Source: Acidobacteriota bacterium (lineage in GTDB: Bacteria > Acidobacteriota > UBA6911). Taken from it: a DNA stretch of 54,357 nucleotides. Below the pieces are notes generated by a model. It worked only from the letters and a program-made list of their open reading frames with translations, was not told the DNA's origin and did not search any database. Position 1 is the first letter of the stretch; every line of letters begins with the position of its first letter. The stretch covers positions 1 through 54,357 of the forward strand of contig QHZE01000460.1 of NCBI GenBank assembly GCA_003225335.1, in the 5' to 3' direction. Made by a program: the position numbers and the translations under genes. Shown piece by piece: positions 7,059-30,452 of the stretch.

Positions 7059-7243
7059 CAAATGACAAATCACAAATGAACAGTGACAAATAGAAGTCAG
7101 AAGTCCGGACAACGAACTGCGATTTGTCATTTTTCATTGGTCATTTGCCAAATCTCTCTCTGCGGGATCTGCGTCTCTGCGGTGAGATTTTTGGGTTGCG
7201 GCTATGCCGCGCCAGGTGCATCTGGGTTCATCTGTGGTCTGAT
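7059..7243. repeat. Composite repeat, order C-B-L-A, at convergent TPR/PilZ junction
   Basis: Module C begins immediately after the TPR stop (ACAAATGACAAATCACAAAT). It contains a non-palindromic core GTCAGAAGTCCGGACAACGA that is found again at 30482 onward, then B (TCTGCGTCTCTGCGGTGAG), L (GGGTTGCGGC) and A (TTCATCTGTGGT). This is the module order of 3609-3790 read on the other strand. Confidence 0.8.
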
Positions 7244-7255
7244 CTTGTGCAGTTT

Positions 7256-8572
7256 CTAACGTATCTCGAAAGAGGTGGCGGTCTCGTGGAAGACTTCACC
7301 TGTCACCGGGTCAAGCACTCTGGATTTGAGTACGTAGGTGCCTGCCGGGAGGTTCCGGGTCACTTTGAACGGGTCCAGTGGCTGCAGCTCCACATAGGAA
7401 CCAGGCGTCAGCGCCAGCGAACCGTCGGCACCCAGAGAAAAAACGGCTATTGGATTCAGGCTGGGGGCCTCCAGCCATACTTTTGCCTCAATGGTTGCCG
7501 GCGCAGCGCCCTGATTGATGATTCTGTACGAGGCCAACGAGACCGTATCGCCTGAGATGTACTTGGGACTGGCGACCTGGCAATCAACCGCCAGCGAAGG
7601 CATCCGATCATTTCGAACCAGAGGCGACTTTTCGGATGACATGGCCAGAGTGAATGACTTGACCGTCTCCCCGACGATCTCTCCGGTCACGGGATCGAGT
7701 ATGCGTGCGCTGAATTGCGCTTTCCCGCCGAGCATTCCGGGGGAAACGCGCAGCTCAACAGGCCCATACTCTTCGTCCAACCCCGGAGGGAGAACATAAA
7801 GCCCGTCGGCTCCCACGTTCCCCACAGATACGGGATTGACTCCAGGACCGGACATCCAGGTCTTCAACTCCACGCTCTGGCTCGAGTTTGACGGGTTGGA
7901 AACCCGGTAGCCGCTGACGCCAACGGTTTCGCCGGCGCCGTAGCTGTCCTTGCTCATTTGAATGTCGACGATCGCCATGCGCGCGTTTGGCTTGGACTCC
8001 GCCGCCTTGACGATCGCCTGTTCTATCCAACTTCCTTCCTCCGCTTCGGCCTCTTGCGCCGCTGCGTCCGAGGCTGTCGCACCGCCTGCGCCTGAAGCGA
8101 CACCGGAGTGGGCAGTACCCTCTCCCACCAGATAGGGAACATGCTGCGTTTGTTGCGTCTGGCTGACGGTGGTTTGGGGCGGTTCGGTGCGCGTGAATTG
8201 ACGTGATTGCCCGAAGGAAGCCTGGCTCAGGTACGCGAAGGAAAGCAGCAGCGAGGCCGCAATCCTAAGACCGATGCTCGCTTTGGCTTCCACCACGCGC
8301 AGCCCAACGTGGATGCGGTCGGTGTCGCGGCCGCGCCCAATCCACTGCACGGTGGCGTTGGCTCGGAACCTGCCGCCACTTGATACCGTAACAAGCAAAC
8401 CTTGGGTCAGTACATCCTGCTCCAGGATGACGCCCAGACCCGCCCGGCTGAAGTCGCAGCTCTCGCCGGCAATCCTGAACGGTCTGCCCTCGCGGCTGGT
8501 TCCCGTCAGCACAACCGGGAGGTGCAGCTTCGCTCTGACATTCTTTCTTGTAGTGGCTGCACTGTCGGTCAT
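7256..8572 (-). CDS. PilZ-domain membrane protein with two tandem extracytoplasmic repeats
   Basis: 438 aa. Residues ~8-95 form a PilZ domain with both c-di-GMP-contacting motifs: RKNVR (9-13, RxxxR) and DFSRAG (40-45, [D/N]xSxxG). A single hydrophobic segment at ~100-120 (IGLRIAASLLLSFAYLS) follows. After a low-complexity linker come two copies of a ~110-residue beta-rich unit, each ending in the same signature: RILDPVTGEIVGETVKSF and RVLDPVTGEVFHETATSF. Predicted topology is cytoplasmic PilZ, one membrane span, periplasmic repeats. It lies 43 bases after an FN3-LamG gene on the same strand. Start ATG 8572 has GGGAGGG upstream. The domain combination is not one I recognise; an inside-out second-messenger link to the envelope is inference. 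Confidence 0.8.
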   Translation of the reverse strand: MTDSAATTRKNVRAKLHLPVVLTGTSREGRPFRIAGESCDFSRAGLGVILEQDVLTQGLLVTVSSGGRFRANATVQWIGRGRDTDRIHVGLRVVEAKASIGLRIAASLLLSFAYLSQASFGQSRQFTRTEPPQTTVSQTQQTQHVPYLVGEGTAHSGVASGAGGATASDAAAQEAEAEEGSWIEQAIVKAAESKPNARMAIVDIQMSKDSYGAGETVGVSGYRVSNPSNSSQSVELKTWMSGPGVNPVSVGNVGADGLYVLPPGLDEEYGPVELRVSPGMLGGKAQFSARILDPVTGEIVGETVKSFTLAMSSEKSPLVRNDRMPSLAVDCQVASPKYISGDTVSLASYRIINQGAAPATIEAKVWLEAPSLNPIAVFSLGADGSLALTPGSYVELQPLDPFKVTRNLPAGTYVLKSRVLDPVTGEVFHETATSFEIR

Positions 8573-8615
8573 CGTGTCATCCCTCCCGTCAAGCCCTGGC
8601 GCCGTAAATGCCTCT

Positions 8616-10223
8616 TCACGGTTGCGAGCCGATCGCTATGTTCATCAGACTCTGAATTTCCGTCTGGCTCAGCGCGCGGCTGTAGACGCGCAGCTCGTCC
8701 ACAGTCCCCCTGAGGTAGTCCGAACCGTCAAGCACTCGTCCGATCTGAAGGCTGGTCGGTGCAGCTGCGGTTGGACGTATCGTGGAACTGCCCTTCTCAT
8801 CCCCGTCGACATAGAATCGGTGTGTCGCTCCGTCAAAGGTGTAAACAATGTAATGCCATGTCCTGGACGGTTGGTTTGCGGCCACGAGCCAGCCGCCAGG
8901 ATCCTGCCAGACTCCAATTCGGGAGTCCTTGAATCCCGCCTGGATCGAGATCTGCTGCGCGTCATCGGCCAGCGAGACTACAGGCTCCGTCGAGGTCGAC
9001 CGTCTGCTCGCAGTGAACCAGTAGGCTATGGTCTGAGGAGCGTTCATTGCAGGCAAACCGGAACATGGAGCCGTCACGTAGGCATTTTTTCCATTGAACC
9101 AGAGTGCATTTCCGTACTTGCCCGTCGTCCAGCTCGCATTGAATAAGGTGCCGGTATTTGAGTTTCCAGAGTAATCCGCAGCCGTGGTTCCGGCGCCTTC
9201 GTCGAAGGAATACGCGACCACAAGGTCGGCGTTGAGAGGCGTCGTAGTCTTAAATGTGAAATCGGAGCTGGTAACAAGGTTCGTGGCCGCGTCCTTCGAC
9301 GTTACCCGGTAGTGGTAAATCGTACCGGCGGCAAGACCGCTGAGAGTTTGAGTGTGCGAGGTTGTCAGGGACGGATCCAACGCCGACGTGGATCCGTAAC
9401 TCGTCGATGTCCCGTATTGAACCTGTGAATTGGCCGCCTCGTTCGTGCTCCAGCGGATAGTCGCTGCATTGCCGCTGACGCCGCTGCTCGAAACGCTGCT
9501 TATGACAGGCGCGGTCGTGTCGGCCGTGGCGCTCGTCGTAAACGTGAAGTCGCCCGAGGTCGCCGGGTTGCCGGCGGCATCCACAGACTTTACCCGGAAG
9601 TGATACGTGGCGCTCGCCGCCAGGCCGCTGAGCCCCTGGGAGTGCGCCGTCACGAGCGTCGCGTTGAGCGGGGTCGAGGACCCGTACGAGGCCGTGGCGC
9701 CGTAATCCACCTGGCTGTTGGTCTGCTCGTTCGTGGTCCAGGTGACGGTGGCAGAGCTGAAGGTCACCGAGGAACTGGAGACCGCGCTGATGACGGGCGG
9801 GGTCGTGTCACCACCCGTCACAGCCGCGGTGGCCTGGTTTGAGAACCCGCTTTGCACGCCTGAACTGTCGTAGGCGGTAACTGCGAAATAGTAAGTTCCG
9901 GCGGCCAATCCTGTAACGGTGTACGTTGTCCTGGTTCCAACGTCCACAGACGTGCCATACGCTCCGGAAGCCGTTCCGAAATGGACCTTGTATCCGGCCG
10001 CGCCTGTGGAGGCGTTCCAGGCGAGATTAACATCTCCCGCAAAAGAGATCCCCGCAAAGGCCGAAAGACCTAAAACAACCGCCAGGATGGCGAAAGGAGT
10101 GGAGAATCCAAAACGGCGGTCGCTCACGAGGCCAACACTCCCGCGCTCTGTGCCGGTCGATGGGGGCTCGCCGCGCATGTTTCCCTTGGCATTACCCCTC
10201 AAGCGGATGGGATGTCTCCTCAT
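8616..10223 (-). CDS. Secreted protein: three FN3 domains plus a LamG/concanavalin-like domain
   Basis: 535 aa. A basic N-terminus and hydrophobic stretch (FAILAVVLGLSAFAGISFAG, ~45-62) suggest export. Three fibronectin-III units follow at ~63-136, ~142-232 and ~236-327, the last two very similar (STNEAANSQVQYGTSTSYGS against TTNEQTNSQVDYGATASYGS). Then a LamG/concanavalin fold from ~333 (LVVAYSFDEGAGTTAADYSG ... GTVDELRVYSRALSQTEI). No catalytic motif is visible, so adhesion or glycan binding is the likely role. Start ATG 10223 has GGGAG about nine bases upstream. It is first in a two-gene series with the PilZ protein and divergent from trxB across a 513-base gap. Confidence 0.82.
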   Translation of the reverse strand: MRRHPIRLRGNAKGNMRGEPPSTGTERGSVGLVSDRRFGFSTPFAILAVVLGLSAFAGISFAGDVNLAWNASTGAAGYKVHFGTASGAYGTSVDVGTRTTYTVTGLAAGTYYFAVTAYDSSGVQSGFSNQATAAVTGGDTTPPVISAVSSSSVTFSSATVTWTTNEQTNSQVDYGATASYGSSTPLNATLVTAHSQGLSGLAASATYHFRVKSVDAAGNPATSGDFTFTTSATADTTAPVISSVSSSGVSGNAATIRWSTNEAANSQVQYGTSTSYGSTSALDPSLTTSHTQTLSGLAAGTIYHYRVTSKDAATNLVTSSDFTFKTTTPLNADLVVAYSFDEGAGTTAADYSGNSNTGTLFNASWTTGKYGNALWFNGKNAYVTAPCSGLPAMNAPQTIAYWFTASRRSTSTEPVVSLADDAQQISIQAGFKDSRIGVWQDPGGWLVAANQPSRTWHYIVYTFDGATHRFYVDGDEKGSSTIRPTAAAPTSLQIGRVLDGSDYLRGTVDELRVYSRALSQTEIQSLMNIAIGSQP

Positions 10224-13860: not shown

Positions 13861-15270
13861 ATGCCATCCAATCCCAAGTCGCGCCCTTCTCGAGATTCCT
13901 TTCTCGAAACTCTCAACGCCGAGACGTTGGCGGGAACGGAAAACCTCTCTGCCTGGCTCCGCCATGTCGCTGCGCAAGAGAGAACTGAAATCGTCTTCGA
14001 GCTGGAGGCCTGGCTTCGGGGCTTGCGTGCGTTTTTTGACATTCGGCACCTTCCGCTGACGGGGGCTGAGCGCGCCAACCTGGTAAGTCGAAGTTTCTCT
14101 CCCGAAATTCGCATCGTGTACCGCACCCTCCTGCACGTCGAAAGGATAAGCAACGCCATACTCAGCGTGGGACAGCCCCAGAAGCTCGAGTTCGAGACTT
14201 TCGTGGAGGCACAGCTCCGAAAGGGAGCTCGGCCGGACCTGCAGGTCAGCAGGGTTTTGGAACAGCCTACGCCGTTGGACAGCCTGTCGCACTTCCTGGA
14301 AGCCCTAAATGATCTGAGAATGATGGTGCAGGCTCTAAAGGACGCGCCCGACCAGAGCTACCCCGTCTTTCTCGGCATCGGGCGATGCTTCCAGCGGGAC
14401 CTGCGAGATTGCCGGTACATCGACATGCTCCTTACCCAGCAGTTCAAGGTGCAATTCGATCAGGTGGATAATACTGTCGTGAGATCCCTCTTGCGAAGCA
14501 TACGCGACAAACAAGTCCGGCAAAATGTATCCCTTGCCCTCCTTCATCTGTACCGTCTGCTCCGGTATTTGAAGATCGTTTCCCAGGATCTGGTCAGGGA
14601 TCGTCCTCTGCGCCACTACCTGGTAATCTTCTCGCTTCTCCACGAAGAAATGGGCAATCTCTCTCAGTTTCTCAAAGCCGGTTTCCTCCGCCGGCAACAA
14701 GCCGGGCAGGGCCTCTGGAATGCGGTTGAGCTGATCGTGTATTCTCTTCAAATCGAGTCTCAGCGCGCGCTCGAGCGCGAGCTGGTCTTCGTTTCACAGG
14801 AGCGCCAGGCCCCTCCGATTTACACCAAGATCGAAAACAGTCACGGGCTGCTGCGCAATTGCTTCCAGAGCTCCATCGTCGCTCTGGTCCAGGCTTTAGA
14901 CAAATCCGTAGATGCGAAAACCATCTTCCCGTCGATGGTCGATCGGTTGCAGGAAGCACAGAAGCTCCTTCAGGAGCTCTGGGATCTACGCCAGGCCATT
15001 AAGGACTTATTGGACAAAGGGAAGGAATTCGATCTGAACCGCGTCATGGACCGCCTCACGAGTTTTCGAGAGTCCTCGCTACGCTACTTGATGTATCGGG
15101 ATTGGGGCGAATTTGAAAGGTTGTCGGATGCGATTATCACAGCGACGAGTGAGATCGAGTTGCGCACTCTCCTCCGCAAGTTCGTGAGCTTTCTCGAAGC
15201 CCTGGTTCAGGAGGTCTCGAATCGCAGTGTCCTGCGGGAATCGCCTGCAGAATCAATCCTTAGACAATGA
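13861..15270 (+). CDS. Hypothetical large alpha-helical cytoplasmic protein
   Basis: Not recognised. 469 aa, rich in Leu, Arg and Glu and almost wholly helical by inspection (for example LLHLYRLLRYLKIVSQDLVR, LQEAQKLLQELWDLRQAIKD). No signal peptide, transmembrane segment or catalytic motif seen. Its stop overlaps the next start (ATGA at 15267), implying translational coupling with the membrane protein that follows. Start ATG 13861 has only a weak upstream A/G run. It might be a structural or regulatory partner of that protein; no function is assigned. Confidence 0.75.
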   Translation: MPSNPKSRPSRDSFLETLNAETLAGTENLSAWLRHVAAQERTEIVFELEAWLRGLRAFFDIRHLPLTGAERANLVSRSFSPEIRIVYRTLLHVERISNAILSVGQPQKLEFETFVEAQLRKGARPDLQVSRVLEQPTPLDSLSHFLEALNDLRMMVQALKDAPDQSYPVFLGIGRCFQRDLRDCRYIDMLLTQQFKVQFDQVDNTVVRSLLRSIRDKQVRQNVSLALLHLYRLLRYLKIVSQDLVRDRPLRHYLVIFSLLHEEMGNLSQFLKAGFLRRQQAGQGLWNAVELIVYSLQIESQRALERELVFVSQERQAPPIYTKIENSHGLLRNCFQSSIVALVQALDKSVDAKTIFPSMVDRLQEAQKLLQELWDLRQAIKDLLDKGKEFDLNRVMDRLTSFRESSLRYLMYRDWGEFERLSDAIITATSEIELRTLLRKFVSFLEALVQEVSNRSVLRESPAESILRQ

Positions 15271-15887
15271 GCCAGGGTCAGGTGCCTGTAAGAATTATGA
15301 GATTGAAGCGCGCGTTCCTGTGGTCTTCTCTGGGAGGCGTGGCTCTGGGCGTTGGCGTGGCCCTCATAGGAAAGATGGCTCGCAAGCCCGCCTTAAGCCC
15401 TCTCGTTTACGAGAAGATTCCTCCCGGCTGCAAGAGAATATCTCTATGGACCGAGCGATTTGAGATTGGGGTAGCGGGGAAGCCGAGTGTTGCGCACGAT
15501 GAATATCTACTGCAGGTCACGCCTTTCAAGGTGTGGAGTTTCTTGAACCTTCCGTCGCCGGACAACAAGGCTCTGCAGGAGGGCATCCCTGTATACCACG
15601 CCACAGTGATCCGGCACCTCGAACCCGTGAACGGAGAAAACGGGCCGGAAGAAGCTCACGGTCGGGAAGAAACTCAAATCCAGGATCGCTTCTATGGGAT
15701 CCTGTCCGCGAGCGGCGGGCCAGGGAAATCGCCCGGCCCAAACTTGCTCGCTCGGGGTGGGTCGCTGGAGTTGCGTAAGTGCAGCGTGGGCGGCACCAGC
15801 AATGCGGTCGAAACCGGAGAGGTGCATCGCTCTACCGGCCTGGTCCTCAATTATCGCTTTGAGTATACCTATGCCGTTACCGACTGA
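15267..15887 (+). CDS. Hypothetical single-pass membrane or exported protein
   Basis: Not recognised. 206 aa. N-terminal basic stretch and glycine-rich hydrophobic helix (AFLWSSLGGVALGVGVALIG, ~16-35), then a soluble domain containing YHATVIRHLEPVNGENGP and ending in LVLNYRFEYTYAVTD, consistent with a periplasmic beta-rich fold. ATG 15267 overlaps the preceding stop; ATG 15297 (MRLKRAF) is an in-frame alternative and would give a cleaner signal anchor. Convergent with the Clp-like ATPase. Confidence 0.65.
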   Translation: MSQGQVPVRIMRLKRAFLWSSLGGVALGVGVALIGKMARKPALSPLVYEKIPPGCKRISLWTERFEIGVAGKPSVAHDEYLLQVTPFKVWSFLNLPSPDNKALQEGIPVYHATVIRHLEPVNGENGPEEAHGREETQIQDRFYGILSASGGPGKSPGPNLLARGGSLELRKCSVGGTSNAVETGEVHRSTGLVLNYRFEYTYAVTD

Positions 15888-16032: not shown

Positions 16033-17025
16033 CTAGGATATGATGGCGCCTTTTACCAAGCGCCCCACATGGAACTCGAGCTTGCCGTCCCCCACCTCCA
16101 CATGTATCACTTCGTTGGGATCCAGCCCCTTTTCGGCAATCATGCTCGCCAGCGGGTACTCCAGATATTCGCGGACCGCACGGCGCAGCGGCCGTGCCCC
16201 GTAGCGAAGGTTCGTACCGCGCTCGATCAGGAATTTCTTGGATGGGTCGGATATGACCGTTCCGACGCCGGCCATGGCGAGGCGGGCGCGCGTGTCCAGC
16301 AAGAACTTGTCCAGTATAGCCAGCAGATGCTCTTCCTTTAGCCGGTTAAAGGTAATGATTTCGTCGATCCGGTTGATGAACTCCGGGCTGAAGAAATCCT
16401 CGACGGCCCCGATGCAGACGGTCTGGATCTTGGCATCCGCAGAATCCTGATCCAGTTCCTCGAACTTATGACTGGGCGGGCTGAATCCGATGACGGCATT
16501 CTTGGTAATGTCGTCCACCTCCTTGGCGCATACGTTGCTGGTCATCATGATAAAGCAGTTTCTGAAGGTAAGATCTACGGCCCGCCCGGTCTTCAGTTCG
16601 CCGCGCTCCAGGATCTGGAGAAGGAGGTCGTAGAAAGCGCGATCCGCCTTCTCTAACTCCTCAAAAATCACAATCGTGAGCTTTCTGTCCAGTTTTTCCT
16701 GGGTCAGAAACGGAGGCTGTTCGTGCCCCACATACCCTGGAGGCGCGCCCACGAGCTTGGCTACGTCGTGGGGATTCTTGAACTCGGTGCAGTTAACTGC
16801 CACAACTTCGTTCTCATCGCCGTGCAATACCTTGGCCAGGGAACGGCCGATCTGGCTTTTACCAGTCCCGGTGGGCCCCAGGAAGAGAAAGGTCCCGAGG
16901 GGACGCCGCGGGTCGCAGATTCCAAGATCGGCAACCATTACAGCCCGCACTACCGCGTCTATGGCACGGTCCTGGCCAATGATCTCTTTTCTCATCTGTT
17001 CGCGGAGTTCCTGAGCCTTAAGCAC
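16033..17025 (-). CDS. Single-module Clp-type AAA+ ATPase (ClpA/B D2-like)
   Basis: About 330 aa containing only one AAA+ module, homologous to the second module of ClpA/ClpB/ClpC. Seen: Walker A GPTGTGKS (50-57), pore loop GAPPGYVGHEQ, Walker B IVIFEELEKAD, sensor-1 MMTSN, arginine-finger region FINRIDEII and sensor-2 YGARPLRRAV. It lacks the N-domain, first AAA+ module and middle domain of full Clp proteins, and Walker B has Glu where Clp proteins usually have Asp (DEIEKA). Start GTG 17025 with GGGAGG upstream and a TATAAT -10 at 17056-17061 supports this short form. Probably a hexameric unfoldase; no ClpP tripeptide can be confirmed. Confidence 0.85.
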   Translation of the reverse strand: MLKAQELREQMRKEIIGQDRAIDAVVRAVMVADLGICDPRRPLGTFLFLGPTGTGKSQIGRSLAKVLHGDENEVVAVNCTEFKNPHDVAKLVGAPPGYVGHEQPPFLTQEKLDRKLTIVIFEELEKADRAFYDLLLQILERGELKTGRAVDLTFRNCFIMMTSNVCAKEVDDITKNAVIGFSPPSHKFEELDQDSADAKIQTVCIGAVEDFFSPEFINRIDEIITFNRLKEEHLLAILDKFLLDTRARLAMAGVGTVISDPSKKFLIERGTNLRYGARPLRRAVREYLEYPLASMIAEKGLDPNEVIHVEVGDGKLEFHVGRLVKGAIIS

Positions 17026-17055
17026 GGTGCCTCCCTTCGCGCGTTCTGGAACGCT

Positions 17056-17061
17056 ATTATA
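17056..17061 (-). promoter_or_regulatory. -10 box for the Clp-like ATPase
   Basis: Perfect TATAAT on the minus strand, about 30 bases before the GTG start and just upstream of the GGGAGG ribosome-binding site. No good -35 box at 17-base spacing. It argues against the longer ORF start at 17157. Confidence 0.5.
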
Positions 17062-17323
17062 GATTACGCAAAACAACAAAAGGTTTCCGAATCTGATGTT
17101 TGGAGCTCGGTGAAGACCGCAGCCCGAAGGCCAAACACCCCACACCTTTTGAAGCATTGCTTTGAATGTGCTCCGATCAAGTCCTGATGGAACACAGCAG
17201 GCAGGGATGCACCGAAATTACACGGTAACCCGGAAACGGAAGCTCCGTGTGCACCCGTGCCTATAGTTCATATCGGCGCGAGGCCCAAAAGCATTTCGAT
17301 GCCGTGGAGAAATATGCTAGCTT

Positions 17324-19020: not shown

Positions 19021-20880
19021 ATGAGCAAGATCAAGGTCCTGCCCGAGACCCTTGCCAATAAGATCGCGGCAGGGGAAATCGTGGAACGGCCGGCTTCCGT
19101 GGTAAAGGAGCTGCTCGAGAATTCCGTCGATGCCGGCGCCGGCTCGGTCGCCGCGGCAGTGCAGTCCGGAGGCAAGCGCCTGCTCCAGGTGCGAGATGAC
19201 GGCGAAGGGATGACCCAGGACGATGCCATCCTCGCCTTCGAGCATCACGCCACCAGCAAACTGCAGACCGCGGAAGACCTCAATGCCATCGCAACGCTCG
19301 GGTTCCGCGGCGAGGCATTGCCGTCCATGGCTTCCATATCCCGATTGGTTCTCAGGACCCGCCATCCTTCCGATCCGGCGGCGGCGGGAACGGAAGTCGA
19401 AATTCAGGGGGGCACGCTGCGATCTGTTAAGACCGTCCCTTGGGAGAAGGGGACTGAAGTCACGGTCCGGGACCTCTTTTTCAACGTGCCTGCGCGCAGG
19501 AAGTTTCTGCGCTCCAACGATACGGAGCTTGGACACATTACCAGGCTCGTAACCCACTATGCCCTGGCCCACCCCGAGATGCGCTTCTCTCTTGAGAGCG
19601 ACGGGCGCGCGCTGTTCGATGTGGTCCCTGTGCCCACGTTGAAGGACAGGATTTACCAACTCTTTGGCGAGGGTTTCCTGGAGAATCTCGTGGAGGTCTC
19701 CGGCCGCGCGGGAAATGTTGAGGTCTATGGCTTCAGCTCGCGGCCGCATGAGCAGAAAACGAATCCGTACTCGCAGTTCTTCTACGTAAATCGCCGCATG
19801 GTGCGGGACAAGTTGATCGCAAGCGCCGTGCGCCAAGCCTACCGGAATTGCATTCCTGCCTCTGCGTATCCGGTCGTGCTTCTCTTCGTGCAGTTGCCCT
19901 TTGACGAGGTGGATGTCAACGCGCATCCGGCCAAGACCGAGATCCGCTTCAGACAGCAGGGGCTCGTCCACGATCTGATTCTGGATGCGATCCAGCGCGC
20001 GCTGGTCGGGAGTAAATCGATTCCGATTTACGAGCATCGCAGCGATGCGTGGCAGGAGGCTCCGATTCCTGGAAGCAATTTCCCGGGGAGCCCCTGGACC
20101 ACCAGGTCGGCTCCGGAATCCACACCATTTGATTTCACGCCGCCCAGTGCGGCCGCCGATCCATTCCAACGGGCTTTCAACTATCCCTTCCGAGATGAAA
20201 CTTCGGCTCCTCCTGAGTATCCGCAGGACCACCACGGTTTGCGCATACGGCCCGACATGCTGCTGGGAGCGCCCACCGAACTTGCTGCGAGTCCATTCGA
20301 TTTGTCGGGAGCCCGGATTCTCGGGCAGATCCATGACAGCTATGTCATCGCAAATGACAGCCGGGGCCTGTTGATCATCGATCAGCACGTGGCCCACGAA
20401 CGCATTCTCTACGAAAAACACGCTCAAGCTGTTCGACAGCAGTCCGTCGAGGTCCAGGGGTTGCTCGTACCCGTCGCGCTCGAGCTGCCTCCGCATCAAA
20501 CCGTCATTCTAGATCGATCTCTTCCGGAGCTCCGGAGGAGCGGTTTCCAGGTGGAACGGTTCGGGGGCAATTCGATTCTCGTCCGGTCTGTGCCCGCCGT
20601 CGCAAAGGATTACGACTGCCAGAAGGTGTTGTCGGAGATCCTTGAGGGGTTGGAGTCGGAGGACAGAACCTTGGATGTGGATCGCATCCGCGACAGGATC
20701 GCCGTCAGCATGGCCTGCAGGGGTGCAATTAAGGTCCATATGCCCCTGGCTATGGAAAAGATGCAGTGGTTGCTCGACGAACTGTGCAAGACAAAGATTC
20801 CGACGAATTGCCCGCACGGCAGGCCCATCATTCTTCGATTCAGCTTGTACGAGATCGAAAGAAACTTCGGCCGGATCTGA
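19021..20880 (+). CDS. mutL: DNA mismatch repair protein MutL with endonuclease motif
   Basis: GHKL ATPase that links MutS to strand nicking. 619 aa. N-terminal motifs: ELLENSVDAGA, DDGEGM, HHATSK and GFRGEAL. The C-terminal domain holds the metal-dependent nicking motif DQHVAHERILYEK (~453) plus ACRGAIK and CPHGRP, so this MutL should be an endonuclease of the type found in bacteria without MutH. A Pro/Ser-rich linker joins the halves. ATG 19021 fits the family start (MSKIKVLPETLANKIAAGE). mutS is also in this window, at 41-43 kb on the other strand. Repeat D follows the stop directly. Confidence 0.95.
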   Translation: MSKIKVLPETLANKIAAGEIVERPASVVKELLENSVDAGAGSVAAAVQSGGKRLLQVRDDGEGMTQDDAILAFEHHATSKLQTAEDLNAIATLGFRGEALPSMASISRLVLRTRHPSDPAAAGTEVEIQGGTLRSVKTVPWEKGTEVTVRDLFFNVPARRKFLRSNDTELGHITRLVTHYALAHPEMRFSLESDGRALFDVVPVPTLKDRIYQLFGEGFLENLVEVSGRAGNVEVYGFSSRPHEQKTNPYSQFFYVNRRMVRDKLIASAVRQAYRNCIPASAYPVVLLFVQLPFDEVDVNAHPAKTEIRFRQQGLVHDLILDAIQRALVGSKSIPIYEHRSDAWQEAPIPGSNFPGSPWTTRSAPESTPFDFTPPSAAADPFQRAFNYPFRDETSAPPEYPQDHHGLRIRPDMLLGAPTELAASPFDLSGARILGQIHDSYVIANDSRGLLIIDQHVAHERILYEKHAQAVRQQSVEVQGLLVPVALELPPHQTVILDRSLPELRRSGFQVERFGGNSILVRSVPAVAKDYDCQKVLSEILEGLESEDRTLDVDRIRDRIAVSMACRGAIKVHMPLAMEKMQWLLDELCKTKIPTNCPHGRPIILRFSLYEIERNFGRI

Positions 20881-20963
20881 TTGATTTCGGATTGCGGATT
20901 TCGGATTGTCGTAATCGAAGCCGTCTACTAATTCCAAATCCGCAATCCGCAATCCGAAATCAA
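20881..20963. repeat. Repeat D inverted repeat between mutL and accA
   Basis: TTGATTTCGGATTGCGGATT faces AATCCGCAATCCGAAATCAA, nearly a perfect inverted repeat with ~40-base arms. It starts at the mutL stop and ends one base before the accA stop. Probable bidirectional terminator. Confidence 0.8.
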
Positions 20964-20964
20964 T

Positions 20965-21927
20965 TCAAGGGGCGTAGAGTTTGTTAAGCCGCACAACGGC
21001 GCCCATGCTCCGAAACTTCTGATAACGCTGCTCGCGCAATTGCGCGCCCGTCATGCCCAAGAGCGATTCCAGCGCCGGCCTCAGCTTGCCGTCCAGCATC
21101 TCCGCGGCGGCTTTGTGGTCCGTCTGTGCGCCGGCCGGGGGCTCCGGTACGATCTCATCGATGATGTGAAATTCCTGGAGGTCCGGAGCCGTCAACTTGA
21201 GGGCCTCCGCCGCCGCCTCCACATGGTCCTGGTCCTTCCATAGAATCGCGGAGCATCCCTCGGGAGTAATGACCGTGTAGACGGCGTTTTCCATCATCAG
21301 GATGTGGTTTCCGACGCCGATTCCCAGCGCTCCGCCGCTACCGCCTTCTCCAATGATACAGACAATCACAGGGACCGCGAGGCGGTTCATCTCGCGAAGG
21401 TTGTGCGCAATGGCTTCGGCCTGGCCCCTTTCTTCCGCCCCGACGCTGGGATAGGCGCCCGGCGTGTCAATGAAAGCGATGATGGGGCGCGAGAATTTCT
21501 CCGCGAGCTTCATGGCCCGCAGCGCCTTGCGATAACCTTCCGGTTGGGCGTAACCGAAATTGCGATACTGGCGCTGCTTCAGGTCGCGTCCTTTCTGATG
21601 TCCCACGACCATGACGTGATGCCCATGATAGCGCGCCATGCCGGCGACTATAGCCGGGTCGTCGCCAAAACGCCGGTCCCCGTGAATTTCTGAGAAGTCC
21701 TGAAAGAGGCGCTCCACATAGTCGAGCGTATAGGGGCGTTGCTCGTGCCGGGCCAGCAGCGTGCGCTCCCAGGCCTTGCTGCCGGGACGGATTGCTTCCC
21801 TGAGCCGCCGAAGCTCTGCCCGAAGCCGCTCGACTTCGGACCCCCGGCTGGAGGGCCGTTCCCGGGCCAGACGGTCGATGTCGGATTCGAGGGACCGTAT
21901 CTTGTCTGCTATTTCGTCGTCACTCAT
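20965..21927 (-). CDS. accA: Acetyl-CoA carboxylase carboxyltransferase subunit alpha
   Basis: Carboxyltransferase half-site that moves CO2 from carboxybiotin to acetyl-CoA for fatty-acid synthesis; works with AccD. 320 aa. Seen: coiled N-terminus (EVERLRAELRRLREAI), RPYTLDYVERLFQDFSEIHGDR, PEGYRKALRAMKLAEKF, FIDTPGAYPSVGAEERGQ and GEGGSGGALGIGVGN. Start ATG 21927 (MSDDEIADK) is preceded by GGAGACCGCGGG; the ORF extension upstream (FICVHLWFH) is translated repeat A. It follows dnaE on the same strand after a 136-base gap that holds repeat A. Confidence 0.95.
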   Translation of the reverse strand: MSDDEIADKIRSLESDIDRLARERPSSRGSEVERLRAELRRLREAIRPGSKAWERTLLARHEQRPYTLDYVERLFQDFSEIHGDRRFGDDPAIVAGMARYHGHHVMVVGHQKGRDLKQRQYRNFGYAQPEGYRKALRAMKLAEKFSRPIIAFIDTPGAYPSVGAEERGQAEAIAHNLREMNRLAVPVIVCIIGEGGSGGALGIGVGNHILMMENAVYTVITPEGCSAILWKDQDHVEAAAEALKLTAPDLQEFHIIDEIVPEPPAGAQTDHKAAAEMLDGKLRPALESLLGMTGAQLREQRYQKFRSMGAVVRLNKLYAP

Positions 21928-28332: not shown

Positions 28333-29229
28333 ATGCAGTGGAGGGACGGCTTGTATATCTTGCTTCTCCCCGTCGCCGTCGTAATCGCCTGGATCGTTGC
28401 GGAGCGCGCGCGTCTGCGGCGTCTGCGGTCCTTTGGCGATCCCGAGATTCTCGGCATGCCCGGGCGTAAGCGCACGCGGATTTTGGCGCTGGCACTTCTG
28501 ACCGGGAGCTTCGTCTTGCTCGCCGCCGTTTTGCCGTTTGCGGTCCCAAAGGCTGCGCCGTCTGACGGAGAGTCCCTTGTGGAGATACTCCTGGATTCAG
28601 GGATCGCAGAGGGCGGTGATTCCCAAGCGGCCGATGCGCTGGAGCTCATCGAAGAGAAGGTCCGCGCGGTAGTCAGACTCTCTCCTCGCTCCCACTTTGC
28701 GCTTTACAAGTCGGCAGACCCCTTACAAGTCGTTGTTCCGCCGACGACGGATGCCCAGGGTCTTCTGATCCTCCTGAACCGGCTGCGCGAGGAATGGCGG
28801 GGAGAAGCCCCGGTCTCCTTTTATGACAGCGTGGATGCTCTGCGGAGGCTCACTCCGAGCAAGAACTGGCGCCGGCGCATTGTTGGGATCGCAGCGCCCT
28901 CCCGGGCAGATTCCGCGGCCAAAAGTCCACCTCCTTCTTATGATGTCCCCGAGGTCTTGATCCTGAGAGTGACCCGAACAGCCCCTGATGAGTCCCCGGC
29001 GCCGGGAATTGAGACCGCCGCAAAGGATGCGGATGTCCAGGTCGCCGGCCTGCGCGAGTTTCTACGCGCGGAGAGGACGACGCAGCGCCGGTCCAGGAGC
29101 ACGCTTCAAGGTTTCACTTACAGCCAGTATCTGGCGTCGCTGGGCTTCTTCGCTTTGCTGGGAGAAGTTCTCGTATGCCGCTACTTTCGGGCGGCCACGC
29201 AGGGCCGCCCCTACGCGCCCAGGGGCTGA
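28333..29229 (+). CDS. BatB-like membrane protein with degenerate vWA domain
   Basis: 298 aa. Two N-terminal hydrophobic segments (~6-24, ~48-70), a vWA-like core and a C-terminal helix (YLASLGFFALLGEVLVCRYF). The MIDAS motif is degraded: LLDSGIAEGGDS replaces DxSxS, so metal-dependent ligand binding is probably lost. It starts 17 bases after the preceding gene. The final ~12 residues (AATQGRPYAPRG) are encoded by half of repeat H (GGCCACGCAGGGCCGCCCCTAC), so the natural C-terminus seems to have been replaced or extended by the repeat. Assignment as BatB-like rests on position and topology more than on motifs. Confidence 0.65.
   Translation: MQWRDGLYILLLPVAVVIAWIVAERARLRRLRSFGDPEILGMPGRKRTRILALALLTGSFVLLAAVLPFAVPKAAPSDGESLVEILLDSGIAEGGDSQAADALELIEEKVRAVVRLSPRSHFALYKSADPLQVVVPPTTDAQGLLILLNRLREEWRGEAPVSFYDSVDALRRLTPSKNWRRRIVGIAAPSRADSAAKSPPPSYDVPEVLILRVTRTAPDESPAPGIETAAKDADVQVAGLREFLRAERTTQRRSRSTLQGFTYSQYLASLGFFALLGEVLVCRYFRAATQGRPYAPRG
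29188..29229. repeat. Repeat H half copy inside the 3' end of a coding region
   Basis: GGGCGGCCACGCAGGGCCGC then CCCTACGCGCCCAGGGGC, the right arm of repeat H (compare GGTCGGCCACGCAGGACCGC at 728). Here it is translated as the last residues of the BatB-like protein. Confidence 0.7.
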
Positions 29230-29240
29230 AGGAGTGCAGG

Positions 29241-30452
29241 GTGAATAGACGCGCGGTGCTGCTCGCCTTGGGTTTCATTTTTCACTCGGACGACAAACTC
29301 CTCTTTTCCTGGGAAGATCAGGGTCGCGCTTTCAGCGCGCAGATTGCTCCGGGGCTGAAAATCAGAACCGAGGTGTCGTCACAGTTCCTACATGTGGGAC
29401 AGCAGTTCAGCATCCTGTACAGCCTTGTAACCCAGCGGTACCCCACCGAAATCGATATTGAACCTCAGCAATATTCCGGATTCTGGACTGAGATCGTGCC
29501 CCTGGCGGAGCAAACGCGTACGATCACGCGCTTGCTCGATGGACGTCCTACCCACGAATTCCTTCTGCGACAGATAATAGCCTCCCCATTGGAAGAGGGC
29601 GCGCTCGGACTTCCACCGCTGTCGGTGAAGATCATGATGGCCCGCAGTGCGGCCGCCGGCGCCCCACGCTGGGATGTTGTTGCGAAGTCGAATCCCGTGT
29701 CTCTTACGGTGCTTCCTTTGCCGGCGTCAGAGGCCGGAGCCACGACATCACTTTTGGTGGGGACCCTGGAAGGGCGGCTGGAAGAAAGCAAGCGATCGCA
29801 GGGAAGGGAAGTAATTCTCGACTTGCAGGGGACTGCCAACCTCGCATTCTTTCAGCCTCTTGACTGGTTCCGCGGGACCGGGGTGGCTTTCCTTGCTCCA
29901 CGCCTGGTCCAGGCAGAGTCTTTCGTCGAAACCTGGGACACGGGGGATAGACGGCGGCTCACGATGCAGCAGCACCACCGGTGGTCGATCTGGATGATTC
30001 CCCAGGAGGGGGCCGCGAGGCGTGTTGAAGATCTGCAGATTCCTGTCTTCGACCCGGGCAGAGGCACATGGACGAACGTCCGCATCCCCGGAATCGACGT
30101 CAGGGCGCCGTCCTCCACGACGCGCCCTGCGGCCCCGGCGCCCCTGCCTTCGTCCGAGCGCGGGTCCGCCGGTTTCTTGGGGCGCTACCGTCGCGCTCTT
30201 TGCGCCGGGGCGGTCCTGGCGCTCGTGTCTCTGGGGGTCTGGCTCCTTCGGAAGCGCAAGACGGAGCGTGTCCTGCATCACTGGATGGGATCGAGCCTGG
30301 AAAAACTGCAACAGCAATCGTCAAGAGCGCCGCGCTCCTTTGTCGAAACCGCGCACAAAATTCTGGAGCGATACGCCGAAGAAAACCATCTCATACCGGG
30401 TTCCGGAGACAAGAACTCGTCCACCGATGGGCTGGCGGGGACGTTCCAATAA
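29241..30452 (+). CDS. BatD-like (oxygen tolerance) protein
   Basis: 403 aa. Start GTG 29241 with AAGGAG six bases upstream; the ORF-track start at 29175 reads repeat H. N-terminal hydrophobic segment (~4-14, AVLLALGFIFH), beta-rich extracytoplasmic domain (SSQFLHVGQQFSILYSLVTQ, PTHEFLLRQIIASPLEEGAL), one transmembrane helix (RALCAGAVLALVSLGVWLL, ~318-336) and a cytoplasmic helical tail. This matches BatD order. It closes a three-gene Bat-type cluster. Stop TAA is immediately followed by repeat C. Confidence 0.75.
   Translation: MNRRAVLLALGFIFHSDDKLLFSWEDQGRAFSAQIAPGLKIRTEVSSQFLHVGQQFSILYSLVTQRYPTEIDIEPQQYSGFWTEIVPLAEQTRTITRLLDGRPTHEFLLRQIIASPLEEGALGLPPLSVKIMMARSAAAGAPRWDVVAKSNPVSLTVLPLPASEAGATTSLLVGTLEGRLEESKRSQGREVILDLQGTANLAFFQPLDWFRGTGVAFLAPRLVQAESFVETWDTGDRRRLTMQQHHRWSIWMIPQEGAARRVEDLQIPVFDPGRGTWTNVRIPGIDVRAPSSTTRPAAPAPLPSSERGSAGFLGRYRRALCAGAVLALVSLGVWLLRKRKTERVLHHWMGSSLEKLQQQSSRAPRSFVETAHKILERYAEENHLIPGSGDKNSSTDGLAGTFQ

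What the first reader, a model, noticed from the sequence alone, without database searches (positions are those of the whole stretch)
7256..8572. PilZ domain fused through a membrane helix to two extracytoplasmic repeats
Intact RxxxR and DxSxxG motifs predict c-di-GMP binding inside the cell, while two ~110-aa repeats ending in LDPVTGE(I/V) sit outside. Such a protein could pass a c-di-GMP signal outward to the envelope. The repeat unit is not one I recognise.
Basis: partly seen in the sequence, partly recalled or inferred. Interest (0 to 1): 0.6.

Follow-up and report, generated by a model that had tools for sequence, protein, structure and literature searches.

The report
c-di-GMP-sensing leader on biofilm-matrix-like protein
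An uncultured acidobacterium makes a protein that joins a sensor for the bacterial 'settle down' signal c-di-GMP, through an export signal, to a pair of domains like those of RbmA, the cholera bacterium's biofilm glue, so the signal could act directly on the export or anchoring of a matrix protein rather than on its gene.

Summary
One 438-aa gene on the MINUS strand (8572->7256) encodes a PilZ domain with intact RxxxR and DxSxxG motifs, a hydrophobic segment, and two homologous ~112-aa repeats. A repeat profile finds only RbmA in the PDB at E<0.01; AlphaFold plus Foldseek returns RbmA as the top eight hits for both repeats together; an Acidobacteria homologue passes Pfam's cut-offs for both PilZ and RbmA-like FnIII. 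Four PilZ-led genes in two MAGs keep the PilZ motifs and the following segment. That segment looks more like a cleavable Sec signal than a plain membrane anchor: a short core, then SFG|Q, VSA|R, TFA|R or SFA|R. In a tandem paralogue without PilZ it is the N-terminal signal. The same PilZ-signal leader also sits on an unrelated exported domain, so it behaves as a module. In relatives the RbmA-like pair is fused straight onto an FN3-LamG protein; in the window that protein is the separate gene 43 bp upstream. Most likely: a c-di-GMP receptor leader that gates export, release or anchoring of an RbmA-like matrix protein. The gating is inference. c-di-GMP binding, cleavage and glycan binding are untested.

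The parts
7256..8572 (-). Whole gene, 438 aa: PilZ - signal segment - disordered linker - two RbmA-like FnIII domains
   Evidence: ORF; AlphaFold2, mean pLDDT 79.5; full-length homologues
8581..8587 (-). GGGAGGG, probable ribosome-binding site 8 nt upstream of the ATG
8282..8572 (-). PilZ domain, residues 1-97 (barrel 19-98)
   Evidence: Pfam; model; MotI/DgrA 5vx6
8534..8548 (-). RxxxR motif, residues 9-13 (RKNVR); the two arginines invariant in the PilZ-bearing homologues
8438..8455 (-). DxSxxG motif, residues 40-45 (DFSRAG); D, S and G invariant in the PilZ-bearing homologues
8210..8275 (-). Hydrophobic Sec signal-like segment, residues 100-121, with likely signal peptidase I site after SFG (residue 121)
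   Evidence: AlphaFold helix 100-121. Cleavage is inferred.
7976..8209 (-). Linker, residues 122-199: low-confidence/disordered 122-166, then two short helices 168-192 with conserved SWI
7631..7975 (-). RbmA-like FnIII repeat 1, residues 200-314, ends ...LDPVTGEIVGETVKSFTL
7259..7600 (-). RbmA-like FnIII repeat 2, residues 325-438, ends ...LDPVTGEVFHETATSFEIR
8616..10223 (-). Co-directional upstream gene, 535 aa: N-terminal signal, FN3 domains, Laminin_G_3; 43 bp gap, probable operon. In relatives this protein and the RbmA-like pair are one polypeptide
   Evidence: Pfam; fusions L007, L008; 52% identity to the LamG part of the L007 fusion

Best explanation
The gene encodes a c-di-GMP-responsive precursor of an RbmA-like matrix or surface protein. 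Shown in sequence and models: an N-terminal PilZ receptor domain, then a Sec-type signal segment, then two RbmA-like FnIII domains. Inferred: the PilZ domain remains in the cytoplasm at the membrane face, since its last strand runs straight into the signal helix, and the signal carries the FnIII pair across the inner membrane. Signal peptidase I then probably cuts after residue ~121 and frees the pair, which may reach the cell surface by type II secretion and act with the co-expressed FN3-LamG protein, probably by holding exopolysaccharide or neighbouring cells. Binding of c-di-GMP to PilZ would gate this step (targeting, translocation, cleavage or retention), so the biofilm signal acts directly on the matrix protein after translation.
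For: PilZ motifs intact in the window and all PilZ-bearing homologues, with PilZ as conserved (47-49%) as the repeats (48-54%) and far more than the linker (26-36%). No in-frame start within 32 codons upstream of the signal core in L006, so PilZ is translated in fusion there. Repeats are RbmA-like: PDB profile search E=3e-5 with only RbmA below 0.01; Foldseek top eight all RbmA, E 4e-10 for the full model and 1.5e-11 for the repeats alone; homologue P0003 passes Pfam RbmA-like_FnIII (31.4 vs 27) and PilZ (30.1 vs 22.5) cut-offs. Signal-like segment: uncharged stretch of 13-20 residues with small -3/-1 residues in four homologues; the same segment opens a PilZ-less tandem paralogue that has its own GAGGGGG site. 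Partner: LamG protein 43 bp upstream here, directly fused to the repeats in G006 and G013. The genome has eight GGDEF diguanylate-cyclase domains and a type II secretion pseudopilin.
Against: No binding, topology, cleavage or secretion data. The window's own PilZ scores just below Pfam's cut-off. Hydrophobicity (KD19 about 1.5-1.7) is borderline between signal peptide and membrane anchor, and my measure is crude. RbmA's switch residue R234 is not kept in the alignment (residue role from PMC5605196), so RbmA's dimer switch need not apply. Full-length PilZ-led RbmA-like proteins are rare: three genes in two of 396 sampled genomes of the phylum. No polysaccharide synthesis cluster lies next to the gene. 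How c-di-GMP would gate export is not seen in any data.
Confidence: 0.45

Rival explanations
1. Uncleaved anchor, Alg44-like: the hydrophobic segment stays as a single membrane span, PilZ inside and the FnIII pair in the periplasm, and c-di-GMP binding changes the outer part or a partner (inside-out signalling, the first reader's model).
For: Alg44 has exactly this topology, N-terminal PilZ, one span, periplasmic domain (PMC8461298); AlphaFold gives one continuous helix 100-121 joined to the PilZ barrel; segment hydrophobicity is within range of an anchor for P0002 and P0004.
Against: Core is short, carries a conserved Q/E near its end and small -3/-1 residues before R/Q in all homologues; the PilZ-less paralogue uses it as an apparent N-terminal signal.
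Confidence: 0.3
2. The PilZ domain no longer controls export: it binds no c-di-GMP or serves another client, and the protein is simply a secreted RbmA-like protein with an unusually long leader.
For: Weak Pfam score for the window's PilZ; G006 and G013 make the RbmA-like pair without any PilZ; a paralogue lacks PilZ and kept the signal.
Against: Arginines and DxSxxG are invariant across four PilZ-bearing homologues with about 45-50% identity, and the PilZ region is as conserved as the repeats.
Confidence: 0.2
3. Artefact: chimeric assembly or frame error that joined a PilZ gene to a secreted protein gene.
For: The window is a contig of a 795-contig MAG.
Against: The same architecture occurs in an independent MAG, twice, one copy with the same LamG gene upstream; GC and GC3 are even along the gene; a second G000 gene has the same leader on another domain.
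Confidence: 0.02

Closest known systems
RbmA of Vibrio cholerae (Pfam PF22021 RbmA-like FnIII; PDB 4kkp, 4be5)
   Same: Two tandem FnIII domains of the same family, exported; RbmA binds exopolysaccharide through FnIII-2 and shapes biofilm (PMC5605196).
   Different: RbmA has an ordinary N-terminal secretion signal and no PilZ (own knowledge; type II signal noted in PMC5605196); its c-di-GMP control is transcriptional (own knowledge). R234 is not conserved here; no vps/rbm cluster nearby.
Alg44 of Pseudomonas aeruginosa
   Same: N-terminal PilZ with RxxxR, one hydrophobic segment, extracytoplasmic C-terminal part (PMC8461298).
   Different: Alg44's outer part is a membrane-fusion domain in an alginate synthase complex, uncleaved; here RbmA-like FnIII domains, a signal-like segment, and no Alg8-like synthase among the neighbouring genes examined.
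LapD/LapG/LapA of Pseudomonas fluorescens
   Same: c-di-GMP read in the cytoplasm controls the fate of a surface adhesin post-translationally (PMC3032545).
   Different: LapD uses a degenerate EAL domain (PMC12564702) and a separate protease and adhesin; here receptor and matrix-like protein are one precursor.
Stand-alone Acidobacteria PilZ proteins (~100 aa)
   Same: Same PilZ subfamily look, e.g. L018, L029, L031.
   Different: They end in a short W-x-x-K/H tail where the signal segment begins here.

Membership tests
PilZ c-di-GMP receptors | RxxxR and (D/N)xSxxG motifs | tested here: met
   R9-KNV-R13 and DFSRAG; the arginines and D, S, G invariant in the PilZ-bearing homologues
PilZ c-di-GMP receptors | Pfam PilZ above curated cut-off | tested here: inconclusive
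   Window 20.6 vs 22.5 bits; homologues 28.3 and 30.1, above the cut-off
PilZ c-di-GMP receptors | PilZ beta-barrel fold | tested here: met
   AlphaFold barrel 19-98 at pLDDT about 90; MotI/DgrA 5vx6 by Foldseek E=2e-4
PilZ c-di-GMP receptors | Binds c-di-GMP | not testable with these tools
   Needs purified protein
RbmA-like | FnIII domain of the PF22021 family | tested here: met
   Homologue P0003 31.4 vs 27 bits; 4 of 10 single repeats match, best 1.2e-4; the window's own repeats were recognised through the family profile and the fold, not by Pfam alone
RbmA-like | Two such domains in tandem | tested here: met
   Repeats 200-314 and 325-438, 37% identical; Foldseek alignment spans about 250 columns of RbmA
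RbmA-like | D97-R234 dimer switch | tested here: not met
   In the alignment R234 falls on E (repeat 1) or D (repeat 2); D97 could not be aligned. Residue roles from PMC5605196
RbmA-like | Binds exopolysaccharide, secreted to the matrix | not testable with these tools
   Needs protein and polysaccharide; signal and T2SS gene present
Sec signal peptidase I substrates | Positive n-region, short hydrophobic core, small residues at -3/-1 | tested here: met
   (R/K) then core then SFG|Q, VSA|R, TFA|R, SFA|R. Read by eye; no signal peptide predictor was available
Sec signal peptidase I substrates | Actual cleavage | not testable with these tools
   Needs N-terminal sequencing
Alg44 | Periplasmic membrane-fusion-type domain and Alg8-type synthase partner | tested here: not met
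   C-terminal part is RbmA-like; neighbouring genes scanned by Pfam show no such synthase next to it

The most novel reading that the evidence does not exclude
The PilZ-plus-signal segment is a swappable leader module: a ligand-binding domain in front of a signal peptide that makes export of whatever follows depend on c-di-GMP. In this one genome it is attached to two unrelated exported domains (RbmA-like FnIII pair, and a ~100-aa Cys-containing domain), a third copy runs off a contig end, and a tandem copy exists without the PilZ.
Probability: 0.25. Interest if true: 0.8.

Novelty: new variant of a known kind. Interest (0 to 1): 0.6.

Why it matters
In V. cholerae c-di-GMP reaches RbmA through transcription (own knowledge); here the receptor is built into an RbmA-like precursor. 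If c-di-GMP gates export or anchoring, it would be a direct, post-translational link between the second messenger and a matrix protein, and an example of a small molecule controlling protein export through a domain in front of the signal peptide. The natural comparison set (leader on two different cargoes, one paralogue without PilZ, relatives without PilZ) makes it directly testable. The text searches made here found no paper describing a PilZ-RbmA-like fusion, but they cover open-licence papers only.

Tried and rejected
A search of genome contigs with the single protein found no relative; with the alignment A1 it found only LaPlata_bin-3695. Searching the class with Pfam PF22021 found nothing, but the controls rang nowhere either and the first look missed G019, whose protein P0003 passes by hmmscan, so it says nothing about absence. 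Profile of the PilZ-signal leader against PDB: no hit; A1 whole: no hit. Internal start giving a PilZ-less form: candidates in window, L010 and L002 but none in L006, so not a general explanation. Relationship between the C-terminal part of the C12 paralogue and the RbmA-like part: rejected (score 36 vs 28 +/- 4.5 in shuffles). Riboswitch or other known RNA element around the gene: none above threshold. Function from gene neighbourhood: only the LamG gene is informative; the rest scanned is housekeeping or unassigned. Other PilZ hits in the phylum checked for a signal segment after PilZ: none among those inspected.

Full report
Observation. Coordinates 7256-8572 hold one open reading frame of 438 codons, on the minus strand, with a good ribosome-binding site. 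The PilZ motifs are intact. Pfam's PilZ model matches at E=5.7e-4, slightly under its cut-off, but both homologues in G019 pass it, AlphaFold builds the barrel with high confidence, and Foldseek brings up the c-di-GMP PilZ protein MotI/DgrA. The two C-terminal repeats are 37% identical and far beyond shuffled sequence.

Where it is. The window is a contig of a 7.5 Mb MAG of the phylum Acidobacteriota (the named relative is 'uncultured Acidobacteria bacterium LaPlata_bin-3695', whose matching contigs correspond by number, position and protein sequence to G019). Full-length homologues: two in G019, 45-48% identical. In 396 genomes drawn from the phylum the repeats clearly occur in four: G000 and G019 with PilZ, G006 and G013 without (two further weak partial hits in G040 and G306 were not followed).

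What the repeats are. A profile of ten repeats (A4) matches only RbmA in the PDB below E=0.01. Foldseek with the model of the whole protein and with a separate model of the pair alone puts RbmA in the first eight ranks; overall TM-scores are modest (about 0.4) with large rmsd over both domains, which I read as a different angle between the domains. Homologue P0003 passes Pfam's RbmA-like FnIII cut-off. RbmA binds Vibrio polysaccharide through FnIII-2 and its D97-R234 switch controls dimerisation (PMC5605196). R234 is not conserved here, so that detail should not be transferred.

What the hydrophobic segment is. In four PilZ-bearing homologues it has a positive residue, a short core (A-x-SLLL...), a polar Q or E, and small residues before R or Q (SFG|Q, VSA|R, TFA|R, SFA|R). 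In contig C12 of the same genome two tandem paralogues share a C-terminal domain; one has PilZ plus the segment, the other starts at an ATG with its own GAGGGGG site about 17 residues before the segment and has no PilZ. This is the pattern of a Sec signal that works with or without PilZ in front. No signal-peptide predictor was available and the hydrophobicity values are borderline, so cleavage is inferred, not shown.

Leader as a module. The leader of the window protein and that of the C12 protein are clearly homologous (score 267 against 28 +/- 5 in shuffles), while the parts after it are unrelated (36 against 28 +/- 4.5). A third PilZ of the same type ends at a contig edge (L003). Other Acidobacteria PilZ proteins inspected lack the segment.

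Partner gene. 43 bp upstream on the same strand lies an FN3-LamG protein with its own N-terminal signal. In G006 and G013 the same FN3-LamG protein continues directly into the two RbmA-like domains, and the window's LamG is 52% identical to the LamG part of the G006 fusion. In G019 one copy has the LamG gene upstream as in the window, the other stands alone. The repeats of the PilZ-bearing proteins group together (87/90 support, below the starred level). So the two proteins of the window very likely work together outside the inner membrane, and the PilZ-led version separates the RbmA-like part from its partner and gives it its own c-di-GMP-reading leader.

Mechanism. Best reading: c-di-GMP controls, through PilZ, the targeting, translocation, cleavage or retention of the RbmA-like part. 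The genome encodes at least eight GGDEF domains and a type II secretion pseudopilin, so the signal and a possible outward route exist. The Alg44-like anchor (PMC8461298) is the main rival, and LapD-LapG-LapA (PMC3032545) is the functional parallel.

Judgement. Architecture: near certain. RbmA-like assignment: strong. Signal peptide: likely. Gating by c-di-GMP: plausible inference. It is a new variant of known kinds (PilZ effectors; RbmA-like matrix proteins), with a less likely but more interesting reading as a ligand-gated export leader.

Noticed in passing
L002/L004 (G000:C12, about 19,750-21,400): Tandem paralogues sharing a ~100-aa Cys-containing exported domain, one with the PilZ-signal leader and one without PilZ; no Pfam family was found for that domain and it has no clear relative in the 38 genomes of the class.
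   Followed up: yes
L003:1492-1737 (G000:C166): Third PilZ of the same subfamily cut off by the contig end; its cargo is unknown.
   Followed up: partly
L013:704-1864 (G013:C226): Fragment of an RbmA-like repeat at a contig start, followed by a protein with a VPDGG-type C-terminal anchor and what looks like an exosortase, hinting that surface sorting may accompany these proteins.
   Followed up: no
L024:6374-7480: Downstream of the G019 copy lies an exported protein with weak matches to formylglycine-enzyme-like families (PvdO, GldK/GldJ), all far below cut-off.
   Followed up: no
window 16033-17157 (-): Short ClpB-like AAA protein with only one AAA_2 module and the D2-small domain.
   Followed up: no
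window 13861-15887 (+) and 28333-30452 (+): Two pairs of adjacent or overlapping ORFs (469 + 206 aa; 298 + 425 aa) with no Pfam match.
   Followed up: no
window 7060-7255; L003:1340-1480; L004:1030-1100: Intergenic stretches of repeated-looking text (such as 'caccgcagagacgcag', 'aatgaccaatgaaaaatgacaaat', 'ggagttcagccttcaggctg') that resemble dispersed intergenic repeats.
   Followed up: no
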